Assembly (NCBI RefSeq): GCF_003201775.1
Contig: NZ_QJJZ01000005.1
Coordinates: 1-64,000, forward strand
Source: Arenibacter sp. ARW7G5Y1
Lineage (GTDB): Bacteria; Bacteroidota; Bacteroidia; Flavobacteriales; Flavobacteriaceae
Length of the DNA: 64,000 bases
Direction: 5' to 3'
How positions within the stretch are numbered: the first letter of the stretch is position 1; each line of letters starts with the position of its first letter. The position numbers and the translations under genes were made by a program. Below, in pieces: positions 11,670 through 64,000 of this stretch. Under the pieces are notes generated by a model, which was given only the letters and a program-made list of their open reading frames with translations, was not told the DNA's origin and searched no databases.

Positions 11670-11681
11670 AAAAAAATTATT

Positions 11682-12314: not shown

Positions 12315-12322
12315 CCTAAAGT

Positions 12323-12378
12323 CCTGCAATGGAAGGTCAATTTCTACGCCCAATTGAAATACCCTTCCATTCAGCAGG
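12323..12378 (+). repeat. Intercistronic hairpin, type AAAGTCCTG...CAGGCACAAAT
   Basis: CCTGC (12323-12327) pairs with GCAGG (12374-12378), ATGGAAGG (12329-12336) with CCTTCCAT (12363-12370), and TCAATT (12337-12342) with AATTGA (12352-12357). Flanks AAAGT and CACAAATTAAA recur at the hairpin at 29094-29159. This suggests a conserved RNA element ahead of transporter genes. Confidence 0.65.
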
Positions 12379-12420
12379 CACAAATTAAACTTTTGAACTC
12401 AATTAATATTTAGAGAATTA

Positions 12421-48170: not shown

Positions 48171-48437
48171 ATGAATAAAAAAAGCATTCTTATTACCATT
48201 TTAATTGGGTTTGCCATAGGTGTTTTTATCCTTCAACCTTTTGGGATAACAATTTTCACGTTTAGCAGCCAGAATTACGAAATCAATTGATGGCAATATT
48301 TAATAAATAATTTCATTGAAATTTTAAATATCAATGGGAATCAAATTTTTGAGAACACTCTGTTTGGCTTATTAGGTGCAAGTGTTGCGCTAATTTATTA
48401 TTTCGGTAAACGAGAAAAGGATATAGATAACAAGTAG
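48171..48437 (+). pseudogene. Small membrane protein interrupted by an in-frame TGA
   Basis: From ATG at 48171 the frame encodes MNKKSILITILIGFAIGVF and then more, with a TGA at 48288-48290 (codon 40). The same frame continues without break to TAG at 48435, reading WQYLINNFIEILN and a second hydrophobic segment LFGLLGASVALIYYFGK. The two halves look like one ~88-residue protein with two membrane helices. A single nonsense mutation or sequencing error would explain it. Both halves are protein-like. Confidence 0.6.
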
Positions 48438-48508
48438 CGGTAAATCGTTATAGGAATGAGCGAAATTTTTTATTTAAATAAGTTAAGTGAAAACTTAATT
48501 AATAGCAG

Positions 48509-48580
48509 GCAGCTTTTATGATGCTTTTTAAAGCAAAATGATTAATAGTATTAAAAGCAAAAGTAGAAGCTGCTTTTTTA
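48509..48580 (+). terminator. Terminator downstream of the broken gene
   Basis: GCAGCTT (48509-48515) pairs with AAGCTGC (48567-48573), followed by TTTTTTT. An inner stem TGCTTTT/AAAAGCA (48522-48559) is also present. It ends the 42-48 kb transcript. Confidence 0.75.
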
Positions 48581-48596
48581 AATTATACAAGTAAAG

Positions 48597-49148
48597 ATGC
48601 GCATTATGAATATTAAACATTGTTTTTTAATAATCTTGTTGGTTAGTTATTATAAGGTAAATGCCCAAAAAGTTTATACAACTGAAGAAGGTCATATTAT
48701 GATGATGACTTTGGTTGATGATAAACCCATCAAGGCAGAAAGCCATAAATTGGCACTATATCTTGATTATGATTCCAAAGTGGTCAATGGTGTACTCGAC
48801 CTTAAGACTTTATCAACATATAGTCCTAAAATCAATGCCCTTTTAGAACAGCGGGAAGACCCTTTAATACTTCGGTTTACTGGCACTATTCCATCACAGG
48901 ATTTTTTATCAAAACGGCACGACCCTATCAACTTTAATTGGCTGATAGATGTTACTTATCAAGGGAAATCCTTTAAATCACAATTTAAAGCAACCATTAC
49001 CCATATAGAACAAGGAGTAAGTATGTCCTGCCTGATAAGTGCAACCGGACAATTATTGGTTTCAAATACTGGTTTGGATTCCTTAATAGAGGGTATCGAT
49101 GATACCATAGAGGTGCAGTTTGCCCAATTGGTGTTGAGATTGGAATGA
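48597..49148 (+). CDS. Secreted protein, YceI-like
   Basis: The protein has 183 residues (a second ATG at 48606 is possible). A signal peptide precedes NAQKVYTTEEGHIMMMTLVDDK, and the body is beta-rich with KVVNGVLDLKTL and FRFTGTIP-like strands, as in YceI-like lipocalin-fold proteins. Match is partial and the family name is tentative. It precedes the Zn/Cd ATPase by 33 bases and may be a periplasmic partner. Confidence 0.5.
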   Translation: MRIMNIKHCFLIILLVSYYKVNAQKVYTTEEGHIMMMTLVDDKPIKAESHKLALYLDYDSKVVNGVLDLKTLSTYSPKINALLEQREDPLILRFTGTIPSQDFLSKRHDPINFNWLIDVTYQGKSFKSQFKATITHIEQGVSMSCLISATGQLLVSNTGLDSLIEGIDDTIEVQFAQLVLRLE

Positions 49149-49181
49149 CTGTGAATTTAAATAAAATTATAATTGATATAA

Positions 49182-51140
49182 ATGAAAAAAAAGAAACTGA
49201 ATTTAAGAGATTTAAATAAAACTTCATCCGATAATCACAAGCGCAATGATGGCCACAACCATAGCAGTCCGGAAAGTATAGGGAAATTTAAAATTTATGT
49301 ACCAGCAATTTTCAGCTTTGTAATGCTGATTATTGGTATTGCGATGGATTATTTTGACGTAGCTTTTTTTAAAGATTGGATACGTATTGTCTGGTATGCA
49401 GTCGCATATCTTCCAGTAGGTTTTCCTGTGATAAAGGAAGGTTGGAACAGCATCAAAAATGGCGATTTCTTTACCGAGTTTTTATTGATGTCCATCGCAA
49501 CCATAGGTGCATTCGCCATTGGCGAATATCCCGAAGGTGTGGCAGTAATGTTGTTTTATGCGGTAGGCGAATTGTTCCAAAGTGCCGCCGTTAAAAGAGC
49601 CAAGAGAAGCATCAAGGCATTACTAGATGTAAGACCTAATGAAGCCTTGGTCTATAGGAACAACAATTATGTTTCTGTAAATCCCGAAATCGTTGCTATT
49701 GGCGAAAAAGTGCAAGTCCGTGTGGGCGAAAAAATTCCTTTGGATGGTATTTTATTGTCCGAAAAAGGCTCGTTCAATACCGCAGCATTAACGGGCGAAA
49801 GCAAACCTGACACCATTGCAAAAGGAGAAAAAGTATTTGCAGGAAGCATCAACCTTGATGGCGTTATTGAAATCGAAACCACCAAGGAATTTAAAGACAG
49901 TTCCATTGCCCGAATCCTTGATATGGTCCAGAATGCCACGGCTCGTAAATCAAAAACCGAATTGTTCATTAGAAAATTTGCAAGAATCTATACACCTATT
50001 GTGGTATTCTTGGCGATTGGATTAACATTTTTGCCCTACTTTTTTGTGGATGATTATGTGTTTAACGATTGGTTATATAGAGCATTGATATTCTTGGTAA
50101 TTTCCTGTCCGTGTGCCTTGGTTATCTCTATTCCGTTGGGTTATTTTGGTGGATTGGGAGCAGCTTCAAAAAATGGAATTCTCTTTAAGGGAGCATCTTT
50201 TTTAGATGAAATGACAAGGATAACCACAGTGGTAATGGACAAAACCGGAACCGTGACCAAAGGTGTTTTCAAAATCAAGGAAATAAAAACCATTGATTGG
50301 GATGAACCCGAATTTATGAAATACCTAATGGCAATGGAAGAACAATCCACCCATCCCATTGCCAAGGCCATAATGGAATATAAAGCCGATGGCGAAGATT
50401 TTCAGGCAAAAGAAGTAACCGAAGTCGCAGGAAAAGGATTAAGGGGAATGGTCAATGGCAAAACTGTTTTAGTTGGGAATAAACCATTGATGACTTCAAA
50501 TAATATCGAAGTTCCATCTGAAACCGACAACATTGTAGAATCCATCGTAATGGTTTCCATTGATGGTAAATTCGCTGGCTATGTCATCATTGCAGACGAA
50601 TTGAAAGAAGATGCCCACGAAGCCATCAAACAAATTAGAGAATCTGGAATTTCCAAAATCATAATGCTTTCCGGCGATAAGGATTCCATAACCCAACAAG
50701 TGGCAAAAGAAATGGGTATTGATACTGCAAAAGGCGGTTTGTTACCAGAAGATAAGCTCAACGAAGTTGAGCATTTGAAAAAACAATTTAATACTAAAGT
50801 AGCCTTTATAGGCGATGGCATCAACGATGCACCGGTTTTGGCAGCGAGCGATGTTGGCATTGCAATGGGTGGTTTGGGCAGCGATGTGGCGATAGAGACC
50901 GCAGATGTAATCATCCAAACAGACCAACCAAGTAAAATAGCTAGAGCCATAAAAATAGGACGTTCTACAAGACGCATCGTTTGGCAGAATATTGGGTTGG
51001 CCTTTGGTGTAAAAGCAGTGGTTTTGGTTTTGGGCGCAGGTGGTCTGGCAACGATGTGGGAAGCAGTTTTTGCCGATGTAGGCGTGGCCTTGTTAGCCAT
51101 TCTGAATGCGGTTCGATTACAGAAGATGAATTGGAAATAG
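49182..51140 (+). CDS. zntA: Zn/Cd/Pb-type P1B ATPase
   Basis: The protein has 652 residues. The N-terminus is short, with a His segment (HKRNDGHNH) and no HMA domain. TM6 has ISCPCALVISIPL (C309, C311) and the catalytic part has DKTGT (D353), STHP and GDGINDAPVLAASDVG. The flanking sequence is typical of the P1B-2 Zn2+/Cd2+/Pb2+ exporters. It would pump metal into the periplasm for further export. Confidence 0.92.
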   Translation: MKKKKLNLRDLNKTSSDNHKRNDGHNHSSPESIGKFKIYVPAIFSFVMLIIGIAMDYFDVAFFKDWIRIVWYAVAYLPVGFPVIKEGWNSIKNGDFFTEFLLMSIATIGAFAIGEYPEGVAVMLFYAVGELFQSAAVKRAKRSIKALLDVRPNEALVYRNNNYVSVNPEIVAIGEKVQVRVGEKIPLDGILLSEKGSFNTAALTGESKPDTIAKGEKVFAGSINLDGVIEIETTKEFKDSSIARILDMVQNATARKSKTELFIRKFARIYTPIVVFLAIGLTFLPYFFVDDYVFNDWLYRALIFLVISCPCALVISIPLGYFGGLGAASKNGILFKGASFLDEMTRITTVVMDKTGTVTKGVFKIKEIKTIDWDEPEFMKYLMAMEEQSTHPIAKAIMEYKADGEDFQAKEVTEVAGKGLRGMVNGKTVLVGNKPLMTSNNIEVPSETDNIVESIVMVSIDGKFAGYVIIADELKEDAHEAIKQIRESGISKIIMLSGDKDSITQQVAKEMGIDTAKGGLLPEDKLNEVEHLKKQFNTKVAFIGDGINDAPVLAASDVGIAMGGLGSDVAIETADVIIQTDQPSKIARAIKIGRSTRRIVWQNIGLAFGVKAVVLVLGAGGLATMWEAVFADVGVALLAILNAVRLQKMNWK

Positions 51141-51149
51141 TATAAAAGA

Positions 51150-51317
51150 ATGTCTCAAAAAAGAAGAAATAGAAGAAACAAAAAAAATCGGAAATCATCG
51201 AATACCGACATCACAAAAAGAGATAAGGTCAAAGGTATTCTTATGATAATCCTTATGGTAATAGCCGCATTTCTGCTTTATTTTTTTGTGCTAAAAGGAA
51301 ATATTCATAAGCATTAA
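51150..51317 (+). CDS. Small basic single-pass membrane protein (paralogue 1)
   Basis: The protein has 55 residues: a strongly basic start MSQKRRNRRNKKNRKS, DITKRDKVKG, and one membrane helix (ILMIILMVIAAFLLYFFV). It lies nine bases after the Zn/Cd ATPase. The next small gene encodes a protein of the same design with recognisable sequence identity, so they probably arose by tandem duplication. Function unknown. Confidence 0.65.
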   Translation: MSQKRRNRRNKKNRKSSNTDITKRDKVKGILMIILMVIAAFLLYFFVLKGNIHKH

Positions 51318-51406
51318 TGAATTAAGATAATAAAATATTCCAAGTGGTTTGTGTGGCTACAAAAATTGAAGTGGAAATGATTGATATATAGTAAAAATGA
51401 TATTCT

Positions 51407-51580
51407 ATGTCGGAAAATAGACGGAATAGACGAAATAAAAAAAGCAATAAAGTACCCTCTGTAAAAAATAGTATTACCAAAAAAGATAAAATAATTTGGA
51501 TTAGTATTCTAATCGTTGTTATTGTGTTAATCTTCTTTGTACTGTTCTTGCAATTCCTAAAGTACTTTATATCTATTTAA
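51407..51580 (+). CDS. Small basic single-pass membrane protein (paralogue 2)
   Basis: The protein has 57 residues, MSENRRNRRNKKSNK at its start, SITKKDKI, and a membrane helix of ~20 residues (SILIVVIVLIFFVLFLQF). It shares RRNRRNKK and ITKxDK with the gene at 51150. Function unknown; an interaction with a transporter is possible. Confidence 0.62.
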   Translation: MSENRRNRRNKKSNKVPSVKNSITKKDKIIWISILIVVIVLIFFVLFLQFLKYFISI

Positions 51581-51646
51581 TTAATTACAATTTTAAATGC
51601 AACGCTATTGCAGAAGATTAAGTGAAAATAATGATACCCAGAATGA

Positions 51647-52498
51647 ATGACGACAAATTACGACGATATATTAAAAAAATTAGACAATAAATTAGATATT
51701 CTTGAAATAGAAGAACAAGATATTTTACTCAAAGCTGAAAAAGGGATTAAACTTGCAAAACAGACCCTTAAATCAGTTAGAAGTATCGTAGTTGATTATG
51801 AATTTGAAACCAAATTAGAGGAAATTCATTTCTTTAAATGTACTAAACCAAAAATTTATAGCAAACTTATTTATTACGTAAAATTATTTAACATTGAAAG
51901 TAAAAGACCCAGGGGAAGCAATAAATCGCAAGTAAAGTATTTGAACAATTATATTGAGAAACTTCAAACCTACTTTAACGACAATCTTGATTTTTACCAT
52001 TATTACCGCAGGGAAGCTACTGTATTTGATGAGCAATATTTTTTAAGAGGCAAGGCAGATATTCGGTTGTTCCCAGACTCATTTCACTTTTTTGTTGATG
52101 AAGAATTTGCAACAAGCCACGATAGTACCGTGGCCTCAATTTTAGCCTACGACCTTTTGATTGTACACTTAAAACGGGAAATTGATAAATTGGAGAATAA
52201 TGGAAATTATGCAAGTTTAAGATTGTTACAAAGTAAAACCAAAATTACCTGGACAGCCCACAAAATATATTTAATTGAACTGATATACGCTTTGCACAGT
52301 ACAGATGTCATTAATAATGGTACTGTTGACATTAAAGATATTGCCTATTTTGTTGAAAAAACATTTAAAGTGGACTTGGGCGATTATTACAGAGCTTTTT
52401 TGGAAATACGGATGCGTAAAAATGGCAGAACCAAATTTTTGGATATTCTGAAAAAGCAGTTGACCAAACGGATGGATGATACTGATAACGTAAAATAA
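51647..52498 (+). CDS. rteC: RteC-domain protein
   Basis: The protein has 283 residues. It matches the RteC pattern (EEIHFFKCTKPKIYSKLIYYVKLFNIESKRP and later NNGTVDIKDIAYFVEKTFKVDLGDYYRAF). RteC of CTnDOT is a DNA-binding activator of excision in Bacteroides. Its presence supports a CTnDOT-like regulation of this element. It is followed by a terminator. Confidence 0.85.
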   Translation: MTTNYDDILKKLDNKLDILEIEEQDILLKAEKGIKLAKQTLKSVRSIVVDYEFETKLEEIHFFKCTKPKIYSKLIYYVKLFNIESKRPRGSNKSQVKYLNNYIEKLQTYFNDNLDFYHYYRREATVFDEQYFLRGKADIRLFPDSFHFFVDEEFATSHDSTVASILAYDLLIVHLKREIDKLENNGNYASLRLLQSKTKITWTAHKIYLIELIYALHSTDVINNGTVDIKDIAYFVEKTFKVDLGDYYRAFLEIRMRKNGRTKFLDILKKQLTKRMDDTDNVK

Positions 52499-52532
52499 AA
52501 CACCCAAGATGCTTCAACTTGGGTGTTTCTTG
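52497..52532 (+). terminator. Terminator after rteC
   Basis: CACCCAAG (52501-52508) pairs with CTTGGGTG (52518-52525), flanked by AAAA before and TTTCTTGTTTT after. A similar CACCCAAG occurs at ~52638, in the otherwise empty 52530-52774 gap. Confidence 0.85.
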
Positions 52533-52774
52533 TTTTATGGAAAATCTCATTTTATTTGGTGGTTTTTAGATAGGGTATTTTTTCTGAAGAAGTACCAAAA
52601 CCCTCTATTGTATTACATTGAAAATGAGAGAAGAAAAACACCCAAGTAGGCCTAACTTGTGAATAAAATCCAGCAAACTACCCCAATTTTGTAGAACGAA
52701 AGTCAAATCAGGTCAGGGGCTATCATTTTAGATGAAAGCAAAACGGTAGTCCCTTTCTTTTAATCCGTTCTATT

Positions 52775-53053
52775 ATGCCCACAAGTATTATTACCACAGA
52801 CGACCTTCGAGAATTCAAAATGGAACTGCTCGATGATATCAAGGAACTACTCAATAGCCAATCTGGTCATATTACCAAAAGGTGGCTAAAATCCCCTGAA
52901 GTAAAAAAGCTTTTGGGAATCTCTTCTGGCACGTTACAGAATTTAAGAATTAATGGCACATTGCCCTACACCAAAGTAGGGGGTGTACTCTATTACGATT
53001 ACGAAGAAATAATTAGCGTAATGGAAAATAATAAAGTTCATAACAAATTCTAA
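52775..53053 (+). CDS. Excisionase/MerR-like helix-turn-helix protein
   Basis: The protein has 92 residues. An HTH of the excisionase type (WLKSPEVKKLLGISSGTLQNLRINGTLPYTKVGGVLYYDYEEI) follows a short N-terminal helix. Such proteins in Bacteroidota ICEs control excision or early genes. It starts the replication/excision module and is followed seven bases later by a possible replication gene. Confidence 0.8.
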   Translation: MPTSIITTDDLREFKMELLDDIKELLNSQSGHITKRWLKSPEVKKLLGISSGTLQNLRINGTLPYTKVGGVLYYDYEEIISVMENNKVHNKF

Positions 53054-53059
53054 ATCGTT

Positions 53060-53746
53060 TTGGAGCAGGTCAATTACATTAAGCACCTAAACGCTGTATT
53101 CTTACAATTCTCAAAGGATAGCCGTTTAAATCCCACGCACATAAGTTTGTACGTGGCATTGTTTCAATTATGGAACAACTATCACTTTCCGACAGAATTC
53201 TATATCAATCGAGAAGAAGCGATGCGGTTTTCCAAGATTGGTTCAAAAACTACCTACCATCGCTGCATCAAAGAACTACATCATTGGAAATACCTATTAT
53301 ACGAACCCTCACATAATCCATTTAAAGGCAGCAGAATCAAGATGTTCAATTTTGGGACAAGTGATGGACAAGCTCTGTACCCAAACCCTACCAATATCGG
53401 GACAAGCAATGGACAAGCGGTGGTATCTATAAACAAACATATACAAACAGGAAAAAACAAAGCAAATGATACTAAACTTGACAAGCCAAAAAATGAAAAT
53501 GAAGTCATTGATTTTTTTGAAAAGGAAAATTGGCCAGAATTGGAAGCCAAAAAATTTTACAACCACTACCAAGGCATCGGTTGGAAAGTAGGTGGAAAAA
53601 CAAAAATTGTCGATTGGCACGCCACAGCTCGAAACTGGATGATAAAGGCCGAAGAGCTAAAAGAAGAAAAAACAATGGTTGCAGTTAGCCAAAATACGGA
53701 CAACCTAAAGACAAGTTCCAACAAAAATTATAATGAACCATTATGA
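53060..53746 (+). CDS. Replication/regulatory ICE protein, TTG start
   Basis: The protein has 228 residues. The frame begins at a TTG, with no ATG nearby upstream of the conserved block; homologues of this type usually begin with MEQVNYIKHLNAVF. The N-terminal half looks like a winged-helix (FSKIGSKTTYHRCIKELHHWKYL), the middle is Asn/Gly-rich (repeated GTSDGQA and GTSNGQA), and the C-terminal part (ENWPELEAKKFYNHYQGIGWKVGGKTKIVDW) resembles phage/ICE replication proteins. It overlaps the ATPase gene start. Confidence 0.7.
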   Translation: MEQVNYIKHLNAVFLQFSKDSRLNPTHISLYVALFQLWNNYHFPTEFYINREEAMRFSKIGSKTTYHRCIKELHHWKYLLYEPSHNPFKGSRIKMFNFGTSDGQALYPNPTNIGTSNGQAVVSINKHIQTGKNKANDTKLDKPKNENEVIDFFEKENWPELEAKKFYNHYQGIGWKVGGKTKIVDWHATARNWMIKAEELKEEKTMVAVSQNTDNLKTSSNKNYNEPL

Positions 53747-54405
53747 ATCCCCACAAACCACATATCATTACCGAGGGTAGCGTTCAATACACCTTGGGAG
53801 AACTGAAAGACAATCAAATGCTTTATGATTTTGATAAAATGCTAATTTATCTCAATGCCAAAGGAAAACTACTTTTTGGCAAGAAATTCAAAATTTTTGA
53901 AGAAGACCGTGATATTATATTCAAGCTCTGTAATTATTTTATCAGGGATGAAGCTAATTGCAAAAAATTAGACATCGACCGCGATAAAGGGATTTTGCTT
54001 TCTGGTCCTGTTGGTTGTGGAAAAACCAGTTTAATGAAACTGTTACGCCATATTGTGCCACATCAGAAATCGTATGAGGTTATACCCACACGAAACATTG
54101 CCTTTGCCTTTAATAATATTGGGTACACCATCATTGAAAATTACGGCGACAAAAAGTTTTATTGTTTTGATGATTTGGGTGTAGAACCCACCGGAAGGCA
54201 TTTTGGAAAAGATTGTAATGTAATGGGCGAAATCTTACTTTCACGTTATGATTTATTTTTAAGTCATAAAACTAAAACACACGCAACTACAAACCTCAAT
54301 GCTAAAGAACTGGAGGAACGTTATGGGAATAGGGTACGTTCAAGGATGCGACAACTGTTCAATTTAATTGCCTTTGATAAAAGCAGTCGTGATAAAAGGG
54401 ATTAA
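53743..54405 (+). CDS. DnaC-like ATPase (helicase loader)
   Basis: The protein has 220 residues with Walker A LSGPVGCGKTSLMK, Walker B YCFDDLG, and sensor-type segments (ATTNLNAKELEERYGNRVRSRM), all in the manner of DnaC/DnaI AAA+ ATPases. It overlaps the preceding gene by four bases and should cooperate with it in replication or mobilisation of the excised element. Confidence 0.83.
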   Translation: MNPHKPHIITEGSVQYTLGELKDNQMLYDFDKMLIYLNAKGKLLFGKKFKIFEEDRDIIFKLCNYFIRDEANCKKLDIDRDKGILLSGPVGCGKTSLMKLLRHIVPHQKSYEVIPTRNIAFAFNNIGYTIIENYGDKKFYCFDDLGVEPTGRHFGKDCNVMGEILLSRYDLFLSHKTKTHATTNLNAKELEERYGNRVRSRMRQLFNLIAFDKSSRDKRD

Positions 54406-54407
54406 AT

Positions 54408-54833
54408 CTAATTTTGGTTTTCTTCCTCTAAAAGAAGTAGTTCGTGTATCATATCGCTTTCATCCAAATATTGAGCCAACCATTCTTGTTGGGAAAGCCA
54501 ATTGATATACTCTTTATCAGATTCCCAAATAGCTTCAACATATTCCCCTCTATATTTACCGAAACTAAATTTCGTTCCAGAATCTTGTCCCTCAACTTCA
54601 GTATCGAACAATTTGTAATAGGTTTCTAATAAACCTTCTTCTCTACACCTGTAATACAGCCATTGTTTTTTATAGCCTTTGTATTGCCTTCTTTTTTCAA
54701 GATATTTTACCATTTCAACATCAGATAAGGCCTTAAATGAATTTCGTTTGGTTTTTGGTTTAAACAACCATCCAAAAGTCATCCCCAAAGTATTTTGAAG
54801 TACGTTCAAAAAGAAAATTGCAATTGCTCTCAT
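54408..54833 (-). CDS. ExoX-like C-terminal domain protein
   Basis: The protein has 141 residues. A hydrophobic start (AIAIFFLNVLQNTLGMTFGWLF) could be a membrane or amphipathic segment. The C-terminal part FSFGKYRGEYVEAIWESDKEYINWLSQQ matches the exodeoxyribonuclease X-like C-terminal domain, with GKYRG as its core. No nuclease domain is present. It is divergent from the flanking plus-strand genes and lies between the DnaC-like gene and the defence genes, possibly as part of the latter. Confidence 0.6.
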   Translation of the reverse strand: MRAIAIFFLNVLQNTLGMTFGWLFKPKTKRNSFKALSDVEMVKYLEKRRQYKGYKKQWLYYRCREEGLLETYYKLFDTEVEGQDSGTKFSFGKYRGEYVEAIWESDKEYINWLSQQEWLAQYLDESDMIHELLLLEEENQN

Positions 54834-55017
54834 TTTATTTGCACTAGAGTTTATAACACTCTAATTAGGCTTAATTTACGAAAAAAAACCAAAATTTTGA
54901 CTTCCAGAAGTAAAGATATATTCTTAATAAAATTTTAACAATTTGTAGGAAACCGTAAGAATTTAAAAAGACATTTCAGTATATTTATAGGCGATTACGC
55001 TTAAAATATTAATGTTT

Positions 55018-55050
55018 AAAAAGCTAATGGGAAATCATTGGCTTTTTTAT
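55018..55050 (+). terminator. Terminator/attenuator in the leader of the Gabija-like operon
   Basis: AAAAAGC-AATG (55018-55029) pairs with CATT-GCTTTTT (55036-55047), with single-base bulges on each side and TTTTTT at the end. It lies in the 5' leader, before the ATG at 55069. Any start at 55012 would overlap it. Confidence 0.7.
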
Positions 55051-55068
55051 TGTTTCAAAATAATTATT

Positions 55069-57183
55069 ATGCATATAAGTTCACTATCCATTAGGAATTT
55101 TAGAAATTTCTATAAATCAAAATTCATTTTTAAAAAAGGTATAAATACTATTTTAGGAGAAAACGGTTCAGGTAAAACCAATCTCTTTTTTGCTTTACGA
55201 GTTTTAATTGATGATAAACTTCCAAGATATATAAGATTTAATGAGTCTGACTTTAACCGAGGTCTGGGTAAATGGGCTGGACATTGGATAATTTTATCGG
55301 TTACTTTTGACGAACTGGATGCGAGTGAAGAAGCACAGGTACTGGCAGTACAATCTTCGGGAGATATGGAAGGCAGCAAAAAGACTGGAAGTTACTCGGT
55401 GTACTTTAGACCAAAATATCAGTTTAGAAAAGAATTATATGATTATTCACAAACCGCAGGTAAAAGTGTAGCAGGGCTTCAGCTTTTTTTTGATAAACTT
55501 ACGATTGATGATTATGAAACGTCTTACTTATGCAGAGGCTCTGGAGATTTTAGTGATGACACTACCTATAAAAAGTATGTTGGCGATTTTGATGCTGTTG
55601 AATTCCCAAACCCAGATGATAAAGAAGAATTGATTTTTGGAACGTTTCTGCCGAGGGAAATAAGTGTGCACAACGAGGTTTCTTGTACGTTCATTAAAGC
55701 ACTTCGAGATGTCGAAAGCGACTTACGTTCCTATTCTACTAATCCATTGATTAATTTATTACGAGGAAAGGAAAAAACTATTGAAGTTTCAAAACAAACG
55801 GACATCATTGATAGCGTTAACAAACTTAACGACCAAATTAGTTCTCTCAAAGAAGTAAAGGATGTGAAAGATGGAATTGACAAAAGTATTAAGGAAGCTG
55901 TGGGTACTACTTACGGCCCTAATATAGATGTCAAATCAGAACTTCCAAATGATATGGAAAAACTACTGCAATCACTCAAACTATGGGTTGGCGACCCAGA
56001 TGAAGAAGGTTATATGGGTAAAATATGGGAGTTGAGTTTGGGAGGTGCAAATATGATTTACCTATCACTAAAGCTATTGGAGTATGAAAAAATCAGAACG
56101 GATAGAATTGCAAATTTTCTTTTAATAGAAGAACCAGAAGCACATATTCATACGCATATTCAAAAAACCCTTTTTGATAATGTGCAAACCAATAAAACAC
56201 AGGTTATTATTTCAACGCATTCTACTCACATTTCATCTGTAAGCCGAATAAGTTCAGTAAATATTTTAAGCCGAGGAAATATGCAGACTTTGGTATATCA
56301 ACCATCTAACAATCTTGATGATGATTATATAACAAGAGCCGAAAGGTACTTGGACGCCATAAGAAGCAACTTGCTTTTCGCGAAAGGCGTTGTTTTGGTT
56401 GAAGGCGATGCAGAACAGATTCTCATTCCTCAAATGTTTAAAAAAGTCTTTGGAATTTCGCTCGATGAAATTGGGATAAGTCTCGTAAACATTGGAAGTA
56501 CAGGTTTTAAAAATGTTGCAAGGCTTTTCCATAAGGATAGAATTCAGAAAAACTGTGCCATACTAACTGACTTGGATGCCAGTATTGTCAATTTACCTGC
56601 AAATGAAGTTGATGATTCTGCTTATGAAAAACATTGTAGGGCATCGCAAATTAGTGGAGCTGAAAGAAAAAAGGAATTGGATAAATTTTGTGACAAAAAC
56701 GACTTCTTGATTCCTTTTTACTCTAAATACACCTTTGAAGTTGATTTCCTTTTGAATGGGAATAGCCACGAATACGTACAATCACTTCCTGAAATTTTCA
56801 AACAACAAGCAGCTATTGATTCTTCAAAGAAAAAGTTAGAAGAAAAATCAGTTTCGATTGCAGGTGTAGAAGTTTTACGATTGGCTGATAAAAAAGGCAA
56901 AGGTTGGCTGGCGTTGGTTGTTGCAGATAATTTAGTTTACAATACTTATATTCCTGAATATATTTTGAAAGCCGTTGCTTTTGCATCTTCGCATTTAAAT
57001 AATGCCTCTAAAGCTAAAACCGCTAAATACAGGTTACGAAAAATTAGTCGTAGTAAAAATGATAGTTATTACGATGTAGCAACAAAAATTAGTTTTAAGG
57101 ATAAAGAAGACCAACAGGTTATTGATGACTATATAGCCAACTTTCCTAATGACCAATTTACTAAATTTTTATCGTTTATATGA
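55069..57183 (+). CDS. gajA: OLD-family ATP-dependent nuclease (GajA-like)
   Basis: The protein has 704 residues from the ATG giving MHISSLSIRNF. An ABC-type ATPase carries Walker A GENGSGKT (K36), a signature LSLGGANMIYLSLKLLE, Walker B LLIEEPEAH (E354, E355) and ISTHSTH. A Toprim domain follows with VEGDAEQ (E445) and LTDLDAS (D501, D503). OLD nucleases next to UvrD-like helicases form the Gabija anti-phage system. Typical GajA is about 580 residues, so this one is longer, mainly between Walker A and the signature. It overlaps the helicase gene by four bases. Confidence 0.9.
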   Translation: MHISSLSIRNFRNFYKSKFIFKKGINTILGENGSGKTNLFFALRVLIDDKLPRYIRFNESDFNRGLGKWAGHWIILSVTFDELDASEEAQVLAVQSSGDMEGSKKTGSYSVYFRPKYQFRKELYDYSQTAGKSVAGLQLFFDKLTIDDYETSYLCRGSGDFSDDTTYKKYVGDFDAVEFPNPDDKEELIFGTFLPREISVHNEVSCTFIKALRDVESDLRSYSTNPLINLLRGKEKTIEVSKQTDIIDSVNKLNDQISSLKEVKDVKDGIDKSIKEAVGTTYGPNIDVKSELPNDMEKLLQSLKLWVGDPDEEGYMGKIWELSLGGANMIYLSLKLLEYEKIRTDRIANFLLIEEPEAHIHTHIQKTLFDNVQTNKTQVIISTHSTHISSVSRISSVNILSRGNMQTLVYQPSNNLDDDYITRAERYLDAIRSNLLFAKGVVLVEGDAEQILIPQMFKKVFGISLDEIGISLVNIGSTGFKNVARLFHKDRIQKNCAILTDLDASIVNLPANEVDDSAYEKHCRASQISGAERKKELDKFCDKNDFLIPFYSKYTFEVDFLLNGNSHEYVQSLPEIFKQQAAIDSSKKKLEEKSVSIAGVEVLRLADKKGKGWLALVVADNLVYNTYIPEYILKAVAFASSHLNNASKAKTAKYRLRKISRSKNDSYYDVATKISFKDKEDQQVIDDYIANFPNDQFTKFLSFI

Positions 57184-58955
57184 TTTTAGATACTTTAAGC
57201 GACCAACAAAAAGATGCCGTTGTTAAAGATGGAAATGTACTTCTTACAGCTTGCCCAGGAAGTGGAAAAACACGAGTGATTATTCATAAACTCGCTTATG
57301 CTCTAAAAAATATTGATGTAAACAGTAAACAAAGGATTGTCGCTCTAACTTTTACCGTAAGGGCTTCCGAAGAAATATATCGCAGATTAAACGCAATGGG
57401 AATTAATAGTAATCGGGTTTGGTCTGGCACTTTGCATTCATTTTGTCTCGAATGGATTATAAAACCCTATTCCTGTTATTTACCTGAACTTGAAAACGGC
57501 TATTTAATTGCCGATGAAACTTATGCCTCGGATATCATAAGTGAACTTAAAGAAAAGCATAAGTTAAAACCTATTGACCCGATTAATTTCAGATTCAATA
57601 GGGACGGCACATTTGCCGAACCAAAAACAATTCAAAAAAGAGTCCTTAAGGATTATCACGAAAGGCTACAAACAGAGAAGTTAATTGATTTTGAGCTTCT
57701 ACTATACTATTCATACAAACTCTTAACCAAGCATCCTAAAATAAAAAAAACGTTATCGAACATTTTTAGCCTTATATGTGTTGATGAATATCAAGACACG
57801 CAAGATTTGCTTTACGCAATTATTTCGTCGATTGTAACAACTGGGGAAGGTAGCTCAAATCTATTTTTAGTAGGAGATACAGACCAAGCAATTTATGCAT
57901 CTTTGGGTGGCATTGCCAAAAGTTTGGAAGAAATACAGGAAGAGTTAAACACTTTACCTATTGAGCAACTTACGCTTTCTGGAAATTATAGGTCCACACA
58001 AAGAATTATCGACTTTTACTCTATATTCCAGACAAACCCAATTAAAATTGAAGCTATTGGTACTAATAAAGACGTTGATAGTATAATAACGTACAATAAC
58101 ACCATTGACAAAGGATATTTAGTAGATGAAATTGGACGACTTATAGAGCATAGTTTAGATAATGGAATTCCAGAAGATGAAATATGCGTATTGGTTCCGC
58201 AATGGTGGTTAATAACTACTATCACAAAACAGTTGAGAGCTAAACTACCAGATGTAAATTTTGATGCTTCAGGTTTAGCACCAATGTCAAAAAATCGAAA
58301 TAACATTTGGTATAAGTTATCGAGGTTGTTCTTAACGCAGCCACAACCAAAAATATATTCATTGCGATACAAATGGTGTTCTGAAGTAATTGAAAACTTT
58401 AAAGAACATACCAATACTGAATTCAGCGAACAATATCAAACAGAGCGAAATGTATTGAAATTGATTAACTCGATAACATCCAATGAAACTGAAGGTATCG
58501 ATTATCTTAATGATTGTTTTGACCAGTTTTTAGAGGCTGTTGGGATTGACCAAACTATTTACGCACAACTTCTTATAAATAGGAAGACCTTTTTCGATGT
58601 AATAAAGAGCCGTCTTGAAGACCCAACGTTTCAAGTTCCAAGTGACATAGCATCATTTATGAGTTTTTATAGAGAAATGTCAGGCGTCGTCATCAATACT
58701 TGCGTTGGTGTTAAAGGAGAAGAATTTGAAACCGTTATTGCTTATGGTTTGCTAAATGGGTATATCCCACATTGGAATGACATTTTTACTGGAGACCCTG
58801 TTGCCGCTTCAAAAAAACTACTTTATGTTATCTGTTCAAGAGCCAAAACCAATTTACACTTGATATCAGAAACTGGCAGACAAACCAAAAAAGGAAACCC
58901 GTTAGAGATTACCCCAGAATTGCAAAATCTTAATTTTGAATTTGATGAAATATAA
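57180..58955 (+). CDS. gajB: UvrD-like helicase (GajB-like)
   Basis: The protein has 591 residues of superfamily 1 helicase type: Walker A TACPGSGKT (K30), LICVDEYQDTQ (D202, E203), VGDTDQAIYASLGG, LSGNYRSTQ, GVKGEEFETVIAYG, and a final CSRAKTNL. It overlaps the OLD gene in ATGA, which is the arrangement of Gabija gajAB. The partner nuclease and helicase are expected to form a complex that degrades phage DNA upon nucleotide depletion. Family membership is clear; activity is inferred. Confidence 0.88.
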   Translation: MILDTLSDQQKDAVVKDGNVLLTACPGSGKTRVIIHKLAYALKNIDVNSKQRIVALTFTVRASEEIYRRLNAMGINSNRVWSGTLHSFCLEWIIKPYSCYLPELENGYLIADETYASDIISELKEKHKLKPIDPINFRFNRDGTFAEPKTIQKRVLKDYHERLQTEKLIDFELLLYYSYKLLTKHPKIKKTLSNIFSLICVDEYQDTQDLLYAIISSIVTTGEGSSNLFLVGDTDQAIYASLGGIAKSLEEIQEELNTLPIEQLTLSGNYRSTQRIIDFYSIFQTNPIKIEAIGTNKDVDSIITYNNTIDKGYLVDEIGRLIEHSLDNGIPEDEICVLVPQWWLITTITKQLRAKLPDVNFDASGLAPMSKNRNNIWYKLSRLFLTQPQPKIYSLRYKWCSEVIENFKEHTNTEFSEQYQTERNVLKLINSITSNETEGIDYLNDCFDQFLEAVGIDQTIYAQLLINRKTFFDVIKSRLEDPTFQVPSDIASFMSFYREMSGVVINTCVGVKGEEFETVIAYGLLNGYIPHWNDIFTGDPVAASKKLLYVICSRAKTNLHLISETGRQTKKGNPLEITPELQNLNFEFDEI

Positions 58956-59015
58956 AAAATGTTGTAATCCATTTGTAACGATTTGAAAAATTAAGGATAG
59001 TGTTTTTAGGATAAA

Positions 59016-60725
59016 ATGAAGAAAATAGATTTAGAGAAAAAATCATTAGAAATTCAAAAAATAATCTCTCGTTATACAAAAGAGAGCTTTGTATGTTTTT
59101 TTGCTGATTTTATTAGACACCATCCAGAAAGAAGCAATATTGGATTTTCAAAAAAATTCAAGTCAAAATTAAAAGATTCTTTATATCTGATAATGTTAAG
59201 ACTCTCTACACCATTGGCAGGCAAGGAAGAACTTCATTATTCAGAAAAAAATGATTTAGTACTTCAGCAAGTTGCTGACATTCTTTTAGAGATAGTTAGT
59301 TTCTATTTATCAGAAAATTATGAGGGAAATGAATTTGATGAGATTTCTGATAAAAGACAAAAATTACTTGTTCACGAATTAGCATTCAAAAATTACTTTC
59401 AAAACGGAATATTAAATTATAGAGAACAAGAGGTAAATAAGGTTATTAGGATGTTTAAACCTTATCAAGATAAAATACAGGAAAGATTAGAAATCGATTT
59501 AAAAACCTTAATTAATTTATGCAATCATTCTGAATTAATTTATCGTGCAAAGTCAATAAATTCAAAGTCATTTATTTTAGACAAAGGCTTTGACAAACTG
59601 GCTCGACAATCTGCAAATGGATTATTAGCAGAGAATGAGTTTACAGATAAGCTGTTAGAACTTTCGAATGAGACCCAAGAAAGTTTTTTGAATTTTTTTG
59701 AGAAACCCCACCAATGTTTACTTTTTGCCAAACAAGATTTTCACCTCTCTTTTGAAGAAAAACATATTGATATTTTCTGTGGCTTATTTTCAATTGATAT
59801 TAAAGATAATCATAGTAATTTATTTTATTCCCAACAAAATCCTTTAGAAAATAAACCGATTATAAGAATTAGTGATAATCAGTATTTAAACGTATATCAA
59901 AAACAATTGCCTTCAGCTCTATATGATTTACTTTATACCACGCTTACTCAAACAAAAAAGGAAAAAGAACAAGTAAATTTCCGTAGAGGAAAAGTTGTTT
60001 TGGAAAGCCATACTTTGGATATATTTAAAAAATTCTTCAAAAAATCAAAAAGGATTAAAATTTTCACCAACTATTACATAAACAACGAGCCAGAAGAAAA
60101 AGATATATTAATCCTTGTGGATAATAACGCCTATATCATTGAATGTAAAGCTTCAAGATATAGAGAACCACGAAGGGTTACGGAACAAGCATACCAAAGA
60201 ATTAAATCTGACTTTAACGACTGTATTCAAAAAGGTTATGACCAATGCTATCAGGTTGAACAGGAATTGTTAAACAATGAAAAGGTTATTGTTAGCTTGA
60301 AAAATAAATCGGAGGTAATTATCACGAATGAAATTCACGAGATTTTTTGCATTGTAGTTACTTCAGAAAGATTTGCTTCCATACAAACCGATTTAGGATT
60401 AATGCTTAAAAGGAAAAATAATGAAGACCCTTACCCTTGGTCAATATATGTCGATGATTTAGAAACTTTTTTGAAAGTGCTTTACAATAGTTTCAGTAAT
60501 CCATCCAGAAAGATTTTTAACTTTTTGGAGCATAGAGAATTACTACACGGAAGATTAATAACCAATGATGAATTGGATGTATGTGCTATGTTCCTAAAAG
60601 ACCCAAAGAACTTCAAAGAAATATGTGAAAGTGAATATGTTGTTTTTACTGACCCAACCCTACAAAATTATTTTGACAAGTTATATTTTGACAAAAAACT
60701 AAAATTTAGGATTGAGGATTTTTAG
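59016..60725 (+). CDS. PD-(D/E)xK nuclease-like protein next to Gabija
   Basis: The protein has 569 residues. The N-terminal ~340 residues are helical and unassigned. At ~355-400 a PD-(D/E)xK-like core is seen: EEKDILILVDNNAYIIECKAS, with D363 and E376-x-K378 in the expected order, followed by a helix (VTEQAYQRIKSDF). The rest is helical. It starts 60 bases after gajB on the same strand, so it may be a third member of the operon. I do not recognise a named family. The codon usage and AT content look similar to gajAB. Confidence 0.6.
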   Translation: MKKIDLEKKSLEIQKIISRYTKESFVCFFADFIRHHPERSNIGFSKKFKSKLKDSLYLIMLRLSTPLAGKEELHYSEKNDLVLQQVADILLEIVSFYLSENYEGNEFDEISDKRQKLLVHELAFKNYFQNGILNYREQEVNKVIRMFKPYQDKIQERLEIDLKTLINLCNHSELIYRAKSINSKSFILDKGFDKLARQSANGLLAENEFTDKLLELSNETQESFLNFFEKPHQCLLFAKQDFHLSFEEKHIDIFCGLFSIDIKDNHSNLFYSQQNPLENKPIIRISDNQYLNVYQKQLPSALYDLLYTTLTQTKKEKEQVNFRRGKVVLESHTLDIFKKFFKKSKRIKIFTNYYINNEPEEKDILILVDNNAYIIECKASRYREPRRVTEQAYQRIKSDFNDCIQKGYDQCYQVEQELLNNEKVIVSLKNKSEVIITNEIHEIFCIVVTSERFASIQTDLGLMLKRKNNEDPYPWSIYVDDLETFLKVLYNSFSNPSRKIFNFLEHRELLHGRLITNDELDVCAMFLKDPKNFKEICESEYVVFTDPTLQNYFDKLYFDKKLKFRIEDF

Positions 60726-60797
60726 TTTTAATTATCTCTTTGAAGATAGTTATAATAATCTTTCTAATGCTTTTTACAATTTCCATAAATATTTCCT

Positions 60798-61463
60798 TCA
60801 TAACCCAACATTTAAATAGTTATACAATCCCATTAAAATGGCCAATGCCATTGCTCTTATATTTTTGGGCTTTAAAAAATAATCTGCTTCATCGGTGCTC
60901 GAAATAAAGCCCATTTCGATGAGTATAGCAGGGCGAATTTCGATATTTTCACGTAGCACTTGAAAATTTGCGAATCGAACTGCTCGTTTTTTAAAGTCCA
61001 ATTTCAGAGTGCTTTCTTCCAAAATGGACAATCCCATTCCGATAGATTTCTTTATAAGTACTTCTTCATCGTTGGTATTATGCACGTAAATGTCCATTCC
61101 TTTTGCCGATGTGTTAGAGGCATTGCAATGTAACGATACAAACACATCAGCCTTTAAGCTTTCAGCTAATCGACTTCTATCGGATAAAGAAATTAAAGTG
61201 TCCATATATCTGGTCGAATACATATCAAACTCGTTATTTAAGAGGGTTTCATTTAGCCTTATAATCTCTTTGGCAATACTTAACGATACATCCTTTTCTT
61301 GAATACTATTTGTACCGATTGCACCAGTATCTTTTCCACCGTGTCCAGGGTCGATGATAATGACTTTTTGTTGACCGAAAATCACACAGAATTGTAGCAT
61401 CAAAATCACAAAACTGACGTTTTTGGGCGTTACCCACTTCCAAAATTTTAGAGTTATCAACAT
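60798..61463 (-). CDS. N-acetylmuramoyl-L-alanine amidase
   Basis: The protein has 221 residues from the ATG giving MLITLKFW; a frame open from a TTG at 61475 is less likely. A signal peptide (to ~FGQQ) is followed by an amidase_3 domain: IIDPGHGGKDTGAIG with the first Zn-binding His, SLHCNASN with the second, and IEMGFISS. It cleaves peptidoglycan and is commonly found with ICE transfer genes, where it may open the cell wall for the channel. It is antisense to its neighbours. Confidence 0.9.
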   Translation of the reverse strand: MLITLKFWKWVTPKNVSFVILMLQFCVIFGQQKVIIIDPGHGGKDTGAIGTNSIQEKDVSLSIAKEIIRLNETLLNNEFDMYSTRYMDTLISLSDRSRLAESLKADVFVSLHCNASNTSAKGMDIYVHNTNDEEVLIKKSIGMGLSILEESTLKLDFKKRAVRFANFQVLRENIEIRPAILIEMGFISSTDEADYFLKPKNIRAMALAILMGLYNYLNVGL

Positions 61464-61629
61464 CGCACTTTTCAATTTTCATAAAATTTGATACCAATTC
61501 GCATCAAATAAAAACAATTGACATCAAAACTTATTTTATTCACAATTTACTGATTATCAGTTCTTTGTATTGCAATATACACTATTTTTCAAATATCAAA
61601 ATTGACGTAAAATCTAAATCACTTTGATT

Positions 61630-61917
61630 ATGAAAAAATCACATTATGTAACCATCTTATCATTACTTATTTCAAGTACAACTTTTGCACAAATTGGAGG
61701 TATCGAAGATTCCGTAAACGATGTTTCTGATACTATCCGAACCATTTTCCCCATTATTTTGGGCGTTATCTTTTTAATTGGATTCCTATTTAATGCTGGA
61801 CATTTCTTTGGCGAAAATGCCGATTTAAAAAAAGGGATTACCCGCGTACTGGTCTTTGTATTGATTGCGGGAGCAGTCGTGGGCATCTTTACGTACCTCA
61901 TTAGCATCGTAGTGTAA
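61630..61917 (+). CDS. TraE/VirB2-like transfer protein (DUF4134-like)
   Basis: The protein has 95 residues from the ATG giving MKKSHYV. A signal peptide ends at TTFAQ. Two membrane helices follow (IFPIILGVIFLIGFLF and VLVFVLIAGAVVGIFTYLI). The size and pattern match the small TraE/DUF4134-type pilin-like proteins of Bacteroidota conjugation systems. The next gene overlaps its stop by one base. Confidence 0.7.
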   Translation: MKKSHYVTILSLLISSTTFAQIGGIEDSVNDVSDTIRTIFPIILGVIFLIGFLFNAGHFFGENADLKKGITRVLVFVLIAGAVVGIFTYLISIVV

Positions 61918-62201
61918 TGAAACGATTCGAGGTCTATAAAAACATACGCAAGCGAGCCGTGATTATGGGTCTGCCCATATCATTGTTCGCTTTAATGATG
62001 ACCGTTGTTATCGGTTCATTGCTGTTCATCATCTTTTCGTTCAGCTTTACTGTTATCATTTCAGTATTTCTATTGAACGGTGCACTGTATATCGTATTGA
62101 CTCACATTACCAAAAACCCTGCATTGATGCACATCAAAAAGGTATTCCCACAAACAATTAGTAACAAAAAAGGAAGTCGTCTGTACTATGAAGAAAATTA
62201 A
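61917..62201 (+). CDS. TraF/VirB3-like transfer protein
   Basis: The protein has 94 residues with a basic start (MKRFEVYKNIRKRAVIMG) and two membrane helices (LFALMMTVVIGSLLFIIF and TVIISVFLLNGALYIVL). It matches the small VirB3-like protein that precedes the VirB4/TraG ATPase in Bacteroidota transfer operons. It overlaps the next gene by 14 bases. Confidence 0.7.
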   Translation: MKRFEVYKNIRKRAVIMGLPISLFALMMTVVIGSLLFIIFSFSFTVIISVFLLNGALYIVLTHITKNPALMHIKKVFPQTISNKKGSRLYYEEN

Positions 62202-64000
62202 CCTATCGGCATATCATCCTATTTTGGATATTCAAGACCATATCGTGTTCGCTAATAACGGCAATGTGGTATTGGGCTATCAAGTGGACAATCCTGAAAT
62301 CTATTCCCTCGCGGAAAAAGATTTTGAGGATATTCACGGTTCGTGGTTTCAAGCGTTTAAATCATTGCCTATTGCCACGGTTATCCACAAACAGGACATC
62401 TATCAGAAAGCTGAATATTTGGCGGAAGAACTTCCGAACAAAAGCTTTTTGCAACGTGCCACACACGATTATTTTAAAGGTCGGGAATTCATTAAACATT
62501 CTTCTTACCTATTCTTTATACTTCCGCACAACAAAGCTTTGAACGCACCGAAGTTTACCAACCCATTCCGCAAGGTCGAAAAGGGTATTCATAAGCAAAT
62601 GGACCATAACGTTCAGGAATTTATTGCTTCTGTTAACGATGCCGTTTCCTTTGTAAATAACAGCCGGAAAGTGTCATTGATACCTTTGGGTATCGATAAA
62701 GTCTTGTCATTGACCAATGCTTATTTTAATGGATTCAACGAAGGATTTGATACCGACATTCTATTGAAAAAAGCGAATATTGAAATTGGCGACCATCATT
62801 TTGATGTGCTGGCCATCAATAGCGAATTGTGTTATGGCGATGTGGTTCAGAGTAGCAAGACCAATGATAAATTTACTTCGGACGACTTTGTATTCCACCA
62901 AGGATTTATTGACGGATTAGGGTTGAATCTCAATGAAAATCATATTGTCAACCAAATCATTTATTTGGATGATAAGCACAAATGGCGAAAGCTGTTGGAC
63001 AAGAAAATTGAAGAACTCAAAAAGAGTTCCAATTTTGGAACACAGAACAAAGTCATCTTAAAGAAGATTGAAGACATTGTTACCAAAATCAATGAGGACG
63101 ATAGTTCAAGAATTATTAGGGGTCATCTAAATATTATATTCTGGGATAAAGATGAAGCACAATTAGAAAGAATTGCTTCCAAAATAAAAACCGAATTCAA
63201 AGAATTGGATATAGTGCCTTATTATCCAAAAGGCGAAGAACGCAAGCAATATTTCTTAAACTCATATTGCTGTTTTACTTCCAATTTTTCTAATGAGGAT
63301 TTATACGTAACCGATTTAAAACACGCTCTTTGCCTGTACATTAACAATACCAACTATCAGTCAGATGCCACAGGTGTCATCTTTAATGACAGACAACATA
63401 ACATTCCTGTACTTAAAGATGTCTGGGATGAAAAGAAGAAACGCATCAAGGCAAGGAACTTTGCCATTTTCGCACCTACTGGAGAGGGAAAATCTTTTTT
63501 GGCAAACAATATTCTACGCCAATATTTTGAACAAAATGTTCGATTGGTCATTATTGATTTAGGTGGTTCATATTCAAAATTTGCCAAGCTCTATCCAGAC
63601 GACCATATCATCCTTCGCTATGAACAGGGAAAAAATTTGGGTATCAATCCATTCTATATCTCTGATGTCAATGATTTGACACCAGAGCGATTGGAAGATT
63701 TGGCAATCTTCCTTTTAGAGCTCTTGGCTTCGGGCAAAGCAACGACTAAAGCTGAAGAAGTGGCGGTCAAAAAAGTACTTCGGTACTACTATCTACAAAA
63801 TGTGGGTGGTACACATTCTTTGGAAAATTTATACCAGTTCGTTGATACAAAAAAAGACACCTTTTTAGAAGAACTACATATTCAAGAGCAACATTTCAAC
63901 ATCTACGATTTTCTGCACATTCTCTCTGAATATGTGGATGATGGCTTGTACAGCTTCCTGTTCAATGTAAGTGAAGACCAGACCTATAAAATTGAGGATA
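62188..64000 (+). CDS. TraG/VirB4-like conjugation ATPase, incomplete at the right edge
   Basis: About 604 codons are visible from the ATG giving MKKINLSAYHP before the window ends. A Walker A motif FAPTGEGKSFL sits near residue 430 and the following strand LVIIDLGGSYSKFAKLYPD is typical of VirB4/TraG ATPases (the family often written TraG in Bacteroides). It drives assembly of the transfer channel. The frame is open throughout. Confidence 0.88.
   Translation, partial: MKKINLSAYHPILDIQDHIVFANNGNVVLGYQVDNPEIYSLAEKDFEDIHGSWFQAFKSLPIATVIHKQDIYQKAEYLAEELPNKSFLQRATHDYFKGREFIKHSSYLFFILPHNKALNAPKFTNPFRKVEKGIHKQMDHNVQEFIASVNDAVSFVNNSRKVSLIPLGIDKVLSLTNAYFNGFNEGFDTDILLKKANIEIGDHHFDVLAINSELCYGDVVQSSKTNDKFTSDDFVFHQGFIDGLGLNLNENHIVNQIIYLDDKHKWRKLLDKKIEELKKSSNFGTQNKVILKKIEDIVTKINEDDSSRIIRGHLNIIFWDKDEAQLERIASKIKTEFKELDIVPYYPKGEERKQYFLNSYCCFTSNFSNEDLYVTDLKHALCLYINNTNYQSDATGVIFNDRQHNIPVLKDVWDEKKKRIKARNFAIFAPTGEGKSFLANNILRQYFEQNVRLVIIDLGGSYSKFAKLYPDDHIILRYEQGKNLGINPFYISDVNDLTPERLEDLAIFLLELLASGKATTKAEEVAVKKVLRYYYLQNVGGTHSLENLYQFVDTKKDTFLEELHIQEQHFNIYDFLHILSEYVDDGLYSFLFNVSEDQTYKIED

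What the first reader, a model, noticed from the sequence alone, without database searches (positions are those of the whole stretch)
54408..60725. Gabija-like defence operon with a third, nuclease-like gene inside a metal-resistance ICE
Seen: OLD nuclease and UvrD-like helicase overlap in ATGA as in Gabija (gajAB), and 60 bases later, on the same strand, is a 569-residue protein with a PD-(D/E)xK-like core (D363, E376-x-K378). A terminator-like hairpin precedes the ATG of the OLD gene. Known: Gabija is a two-gene anti-phage system, and OLD-helicase pairs are widespread. Inference: the third gene may be a Gabija accessory protein or a second, independent defence gene. The element also carries a small ExoX-C-like gene in opposite orientation beside it.
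Basis: partly seen in the sequence, partly recalled or inferred. Interest (0 to 1): 0.7.

Follow-up and report, generated by a model that had tools for sequence, protein, structure and literature searches.

The report
Add-on nuclease behind unrelated defence operons
The third gene behind this bacterial anti-virus (Gabija) gene pair encodes a predicted DNA-cutting enzyme that is not specific to Gabija: relatives sit right behind several unrelated defence systems and alone inside a phage, so it is most likely an unnamed stand-alone defence gene that gets attached to others.

Summary
55069-57183 and 57180-58955 are gajA and gajB (PADLOC 950 and 754 bits). The 569-residue gene 60 bases downstream ('P569') has a PD-(D/E)xK core: E330, D363, K378 and Q410 are identical in 21 of 21 aligned sequences, the window's included, E376 in 19. 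No curated cut-off is reached in Pfam or NCBIfam, nor a significant match in PADLOC or PHROGs; Pfam NERD scores 21.9 bits against 22.1.

It is not a Gabija subunit. In the same ICE slot the same gajAB occurs without it (L091), and it occurs behind another Gabija subtype (L006) and behind IetAS (L007). More distant relatives directly follow a Wadjet (L042) and a type I restriction operon (L034). One stands alone in a P2-like phage contig between portal and gpA, a described defence hotspot.

Best reading: an autonomous, Shedu-like single-gene defence nuclease that is shuffled in behind unrelated defence operons. Cleavage and defence are inferred, not shown. The ExoX-C gene belongs to the ICE backbone. 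The slot is a cargo hotspot: at least 16 of 39 related slots carry other defence genes.

The parts
54886..60792 (+). Exchangeable defence cassette (hairpin, gajA, gajB, 569-aa gene); in L051 the same slot holds a CBASS cassette
   Evidence: blastn to L051: flanks 51003-54885 (85%) and 60793-63473 (87%) align, the stretch between does not; L051 cargo includes cyclase 444.3 bits and phospholipase effector 338.2 bits
55018..55047 (+). terminator-like hairpin with U-run in the leader of gajA
   Evidence: 13 pairs; kept in four alleles, 34 of 36 cells paired, one two-sided change
55069..57183 (+). gajA, OLD-type ATPase plus TOPRIM, 704 aa
   Evidence: PADLOC PDLC00072 950.4 bits over nearly the full model; PF20469 68.7 bits; start by comparison of alleles
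57180..58955 (+). gajB, UvrD-like helicase, 591 aa
   Evidence: PADLOC PDLC00127 754.5 bits; PF00580 153.4 bits
59016..60725 (+). 569-aa predicted nuclease ('P569'): mostly helical N-terminal half, PD-(D/E)xK core, C-terminal part
   Evidence: ORF; NERD 21.9 bits, just below cut-off; relatives; purifying selection
59991..60350 (+). nuclease core, about residues 326-445 (E330 at 60003, D363 at 60102, E376 at 60141, K378 at 60147, Q410 at 60243)
   Evidence: AlphaFold2 model of residues 266-569: block means 82-91 for residues 326-375 and 406-445, but 51-67 for 376-405, which holds E376-x-K378; motif counts; fold matches
53743..54405 (+). DnaC-like ATPase, left edge of the ICE cargo slot
   Evidence: found at the other edge of the cargo in 39 of 40 amidase-anchored loci
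54408..54833 (-). ExoX-C-like gene, ICE backbone of this lineage, not part of the cassette
   Evidence: PF20600 30.1 bits; present (84%) in L051 beside CBASS, no match in L004 beside gajAB plus P569
60798..61475 (-). N-acetylmuramoyl-L-alanine amidase, right edge of the slot
   Evidence: PF01520 136.9 bits; anchor used

Best explanation
P569 is an autonomous, single-gene anti-phage (or anti-element) nuclease: an N-terminal, mostly helical half that probably senses the invader or holds the enzyme off, followed by a NERD/Shedu-like PD-(D/E)xK core that cuts DNA once triggered. It spreads as a separate module through defence hotspots of mobile elements and is repeatedly captured directly behind unrelated defence operons, where it is probably expressed by read-through from their promoter. 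In this window it forms a second layer behind Gabija. Shown here: sequence family, invariant motif residues, nuclease-like fold of the core, purifying selection, separability from gajAB in both directions, recurrent position directly behind unrelated defence operons, solitary position in a phage defence hotspot. Inferred: co-transcription, DNA as substrate, sensing by the N-terminal half, defence function.
Confidence: 0.6

Rival explanations
1. P569 is a shared back-up effector that needs the upstream system: different defence operons recruit it as an extra nuclease that fires when the main system is activated or blocked.
For: Recurrent position -1 to 68 bases behind four different systems, Gabija in two subtypes; in L006 its start overlaps the helicase stop. 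Published surveys place stand-alone NERD genes at the boundary of Dnd systems and propose NERD domains fused to DndF and PglW as suicidal co-effectors (PMC10853773 passages; PMC12839542 passages), and list PD-(D/E)xK genes as the commonest auxiliary nucleases of BREX loci (PMC12839542 section 35 part 1).
Against: Solitary copies in a P2-like phage contig (L094), an Exiguobacterium plasmid (L049) and one of two copies in L039. The same kinds of system occur without it: Gabija in L091, L052, L057, IetAS in L085, L086.
Confidence: 0.2
2. P569 is a third subunit of this Gabija subtype (a 'GajC').
For: 3 of 4 genomes with this GajA subtype among 397 carry P569; in L002, L003, L004, L005, L009 it follows gajB likewise.
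Against: L091 has gajA (89%) and gajB (93%) without it in the same ICE slot; relatives sit behind IetAS, Wadjet and type I RM.
Confidence: 0.07
3. P569 is not a defence gene but a mobile-element nuclease (homing, element maintenance or conjugation helper) that happens to sit in hotspots.
For: The closest relatives lie in copies of this ICE family, others on plasmids and a phage contig; some lie next to transfer-like genes, read by eye (L040, L042).
Against: Directly behind operons of four defence systems and in a P2 locus known for defence genes; not found in 40 of 40 other amidase-anchored loci of related ICEs, so not an ICE core gene.
Confidence: 0.11

Closest known systems
Gabija (GajA/GajB)
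   Same: The upstream pair is a full Gabija by PADLOC models, ATGA overlap, ATPase plus TOPRIM and UvrD helicase
   Different: P569 is not part of known two-gene Gabija and is separable from it; this GajA is a long 704-aa form, only weakly similar in sequence to the solved GajA chains (E 1.2e-12)
Shedu (SduA)
   Different: No Shedu model of Pfam or PADLOC is among the matches at E up to 1; several other nuclease families match the core better
NERD domain (PF08378) nucleases, e.g. those at the boundary of Dnd systems
   Same: NERD is the best Pfam match of the window protein and of 7 of 8 relatives scanned; L042 and L044 pass the cut-off
   Different: The window protein is 0.2 bits below the cut-off; L094 has no match at E 0.001; about 300 residues of N-terminal sequence outside the NERD match
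Can2 / Cdn1 / Card1 nucleases
   Different: These carry a CARF sensor (recalled); no CARF model reaches significance here (PADLOC CARF_PDDEXK E 0.09)
P2-like phage hotspot genes (old, tin and others)
   Same: L094 relative lies in the same interval between portal and gpA
   Different: A different protein family from the OLD proteins; no relative in the INPHARED phage records

Membership tests
Gabija | GajA: OLD-type ATPase with TOPRIM, full-length model match | tested here: met
   PDLC00072 950.4 bits, PF13175 93.5, PF20469 68.7
Gabija | GajB: adjacent UvrD-like helicase | tested here: met
   PDLC00127 754.5 bits, ATGA overlap
Gabija | Anti-phage activity | not testable with these tools
   needs plaque assays
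Gabija (P569 as a component) | Constant companion of gajAB and not found elsewhere | tested here: not met
   absent in L091, L052, L057; present behind IetAS, Wadjet, type I RM and alone
PD-(D/E)xK nuclease superfamily | Conserved E ... D ... (E/Q)xK motif | tested here: met
   21 of 21 aligned sequences for E330, D363, K378; 19 E and 2 Q at 376
PD-(D/E)xK nuclease superfamily | Core fold | tested here: met
NERD (PF08378) | Pfam gathering score 22.1 | tested here: not met
   21.9 bits for the window protein; met by relatives L042 23.4 and L044 27.8
Shedu (SduA) | Match to a Shedu (DUF4263) family model | tested here: not met
   none among Pfam or PADLOC matches at E up to 1; that the libraries hold such a model is recalled, not checked
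Shedu (SduA) | Single gene with N-terminal domain plus PD-(D/E)xK core of SduA type | tested here: inconclusive
   single-gene contexts L094, L049; SduA fold match weak
Stand-alone defence system | Protects alone against phage | not testable with these tools
   needs expression and plaque assays

The most novel reading that the evidence does not exclude
P569 founds an unnamed family of transferable add-on effectors: one nuclease gene that plugs in directly behind mechanistically unrelated defence operons (Gabija, IetAS, Wadjet, type I RM, probably CBASS) and works as a common second line triggered when the first system acts or is blocked.
Probability: 0.2. Interest if true: 0.8.

Novelty: new variant of a known kind. 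Interest (0 to 1): 0.55.

Why it matters
Defence genes are usually catalogued as fixed systems. A gene that recurs directly behind four unrelated systems, and alone in a phage hotspot, is easily missed by system-based catalogues: the window's protein reaches no curated or significant match in the four libraries used. It makes a general question testable with one protein: do defence operons share interchangeable back-up effectors, or do independent defence genes simply hitch-hike on each other's promoters? The DnaC-amidase interval of these Flavobacteriaceae-type ICEs is also a ready-made place to look for further defence genes between two conserved anchors.

Tried and rejected
Gabija third subunit: rejected as the main reading (see rivals). 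ExoX-C gene as part of the cassette: rejected, it lies in the conserved flank. Long ORF start 55012 for gajA: rejected, the hairpin lies inside that extension and in L005 and L091 the ORF begins at the ATG matching 55069. CARF or anti-CRISPR-like matches of P569 (PADLOC E 0.09, NCBIfam AcrIIA4 15.6 bits against a cut-off of 40): treated as chance. Terminator or promoter between gajB and P569: no terminator-like site there and promoter-like sites in the region no more than in shuffles; co-transcription stays open. My first wording, P569 as the last gene of each operon, was mended: it is the next gene behind the operon, and further same-strand genes follow in L006, L034 and L042; for this I lowered the shared-effector reading from 0.22 to 0.20 and interest from 0.56 to 0.55. 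'Five unrelated systems' was mended to four, Gabija in two subtypes.

Solved-structure sequence searches with P569 and with profile A3 found nothing credible.

Relatives: phages 0 records, E. coli genomes 0, plasmids 2 and 3 records, viral contigs: scans with A1, A2 and L034 found none, A3 found L094, and L094 as query found only itself. Of 60 genomes in the order of G749 only G749 itself matched. Left out of the 14-row count: near-identical or duplicate copies (L001, L002, L003, L009, L011-L013, L020, L032, L047, L092, L095); L035, L037, L045 (no ORF passed the profile; L093 covers the remnant of L035); L048 (17.5 bits, in a cluster that looks like sugar genes, likely chance); L094, found by tblastn; and seven longer or more distant relatives under 200 bits (L036, L040, L041, L043, L044, L046, L050), laid out but their neighbours not scanned with PADLOC. 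L010, a row of the profile itself, scores 435 bits partly for that reason. L004, L005 and L008 partners were assigned by likeness to the window and L007, not scanned. No background rate for 'next to a defence gene' was computed. Of 128 cargo proteins in the 40 slots, 27 were scanned with PADLOC, so 16 of 39 is a lower bound for defence content.

Literature: the listings shown in searches (at most 20 papers each) name no paper on this gene, on a third gene of Gabija, or on this ICE slot; only open-licence PMC papers are held, so this is weak evidence of absence.
Full report
What is there. The stretch 54408-60725 holds, in order: an ExoX-C-like gene on the minus strand (PF20600 30.1 bits), a terminator-like hairpin (55018-55047), gajA from ATG 55069, gajB overlapping it in ATGA, and after 60 bases a 569-residue ORF, here called P569. 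gajA and gajB match PADLOC's Gabija models over nearly their full length (PDLC00072 950.4 bits, PDLC00127 754.5 bits). P569 reaches no cut-off in Pfam or NCBIfam, has one PADLOC match at E 0.09 and none in PHROGs; the best is Pfam NERD, 21.9 bits against a cut-off of 22.1. The surroundings are an ICE with RteC, a DnaC-like ATPase, an amidase and Tra proteins, and further left metal pumps.

P569 and gajAB are separable both ways. L091 holds the same gajA (89%) and gajB (93%) in the same slot of a related ICE without P569; DNA similarity to the window ends two bases past the gajB stop, and tblastn finds no credible remnant. In the same slot P569 stands behind a different Gabija subtype in L006 (PDLC00079 780.9 and PDLC00135 588.7 bits; P569 71% identical; start overlaps the helicase stop; an HNH-like gene follows by 8 bases) and behind IetAS in L007 (IetA 251.1, IetS 124.8 bits; P569 59%; gap 67) and, by likeness, in L008 (60%, gap 68), where the subtilase ORF is split in two. 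Against this: 3 of the 4 genomes with this GajA subtype among 397 carry P569, so within this ICE family the two travel together.

The pattern goes beyond this ICE. L042: a relative (37%) 10 bases behind JetD of a Wadjet operon (JetA 445.0, JetB 211.4, JetC 1049.2, JetD 419.2 bits). L034: a relative (30%) 35 bases behind the restriction subunit of a type I system (MTase 530.6, specificity 286.4, PDC-S23 390.0, REase 389.6 bits). In both a further same-strand gene follows 110 bases after P569. L093: a remnant of about 70 residues, 129 bases behind a CBASS operon (phospholipase 332.1, cyclase 349.6, E2 194.2 bits). L039: one of two copies stands in front of SIR2 (327.1) and HerA (599.5) with a 239-aa gene between. 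Counting 14 rows, the window, L004-L008 and the eight with 200 bits or more: 8 are the next gene behind a defence operon, four systems with Gabija in two subtypes; the other 6 are L010 (an HNH-like gene in front; a type I-like restriction subunit and a TmtA-like gene within 10 kb), L033 (contig end), L038 (fragment), L039 twice, L049. No null was computed.

A solitary copy in a phage hotspot. L094 is a P2-like phage contig: terminase, portal and Ogr-like gene, then a 608-aa P569 relative (27%), then gpA on the other strand. Its GC is 0.334 against 0.506 for the locus. Rousset et al. (PMC9122126, passages seen) describe the interval between gpA and portal gpQ of P2-like phages as a hotspot of anti-phage genes, with old and tin in P2 itself. 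This is the best single hint that the gene works alone.

The slot. The DnaC-amidase interval was examined in 40 further loci taken from the upper part of the amidase list; 39 show both edges. None has P569 by profile or tblastn. At least 16 of 39 hold a PADLOC defence match or a close relative of one (CBASS, Gabija, AbiE, Ssp, IetAS, Lamassu-like, RM-type; 27 of 128 cargo proteins scanned), 5 have no ORF of 70 or more residues between the edges (L063, L069, L071, L072, L084), the rest hold other cargo. Against L051 the exchangeable stretch is 54886-60792, replaced there by a CBASS cassette. The ExoX-C gene lies in the conserved flank. The element has moved recently: 99.95% identical over 14,985 bases in Gelidibacter (L003), 98.7% over 14,637 in Olleya (L002), 99.89% over 15,755 in L092.

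How it most likely works. The helical half keeps the nuclease inactive or recognises a phage product; once triggered the PD-(D/E)xK core cuts DNA, phage or host. Expression comes by read-through from the operon in front, which would explain the recurrent position and short gaps. Motif, fold of the core and positions are shown; trigger, substrate and effect are inferred. A back-up role that depends on the front system is the main rival. Published surveys place stand-alone NERD genes at the boundary of Dnd systems, propose NERD domains fused to DndF and PglW as suicidal co-effectors, and list PD-(D/E)xK genes, some paired with OLD ATPases, among the auxiliary nucleases of BREX loci (PMC10853773, passages; PMC12839542, passages and section 35 part 1). 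So the idea is not new; the word Gabija does not occur in the first paper, nor Wadjet or IetAS in the second.

Judgement. The family is an unnamed variant of a known kind, stand-alone PD-(D/E)xK defence nucleases, with an unusually promiscuous position. That position is what makes it worth a bench test.

Noticed in passing
window 55018-55047; L004, L005, L091 upstream of gajA: The terminator-like hairpin just before gajA is kept in four alleles with different upstream genes, so it belongs to the Gabija cassette; it may be an attenuator in the gajA leader.
   Followed up: partly
window 53743-61475 and L051-L090: The DnaC-amidase interval of this ICE family is a cargo hotspot: at least 16 of 39 loci carry other defence genes, 5 are empty, others carry mercury-transport-like or unknown genes (names of the latter read by eye).
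   Followed up: partly
L046:7294-9459 (-): A distant 721-aa relative of P569 (52 bits) lies 45 bases behind genes matching RecD (416.6 bits) and RecB (598.9 bits); interesting because a listed preprint (PMC12407980, start of abstract seen) links Gabija to phages that antagonise RecBCD.
   Followed up: partly
L093:4992-7857 (-): A C-terminal P569 remnant lies behind a CBASS operon (phospholipase, cyclase, E2).
   Followed up: partly
L009:4290-5998: In Lutibacter sp. B1 the P569 frame is broken near residue 211 while gajA and gajB match end to end; loss or sequencing error.
   Followed up: no
L008:7461-9932: The IetS-like subtilase in front of P569 is split into two ORFs (187 and 611 aa), unlike the single 823-aa ORF of L007; broken gene or sequencing error.
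   Followed up: no
L010:9977-11712: The P569 relative is split into two ORFs (216 and 362 aa) overlapping in 4 bases near the border between helical half and nuclease half; real split or frameshift unknown.
   Followed up: no
L006:11713-12618: An HNH-like gene (PF14279 25.5 bits, under its 27.5 cut-off) follows P569 by 8 bases, so this cassette has a fourth possible member.
   Followed up: no
L004 and L005 gajA, gajB, P569: dS between these two is 0.32 for gajA and 0.30 for P569 but 0.89 for gajB, which suggests recombination inside the cassette.
   Followed up: no
L039:6369-8201 and 11628-13397: Two different P569 relatives lie 3.4 kb apart in one genome, one of them in front of a SIR2-HerA pair.
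   Followed up: partly
L002, L003, L092 against window 48246-64000: The ICE stretch is 98.7-99.95% identical between records of different genera, so it has moved recently.
   Followed up: partly
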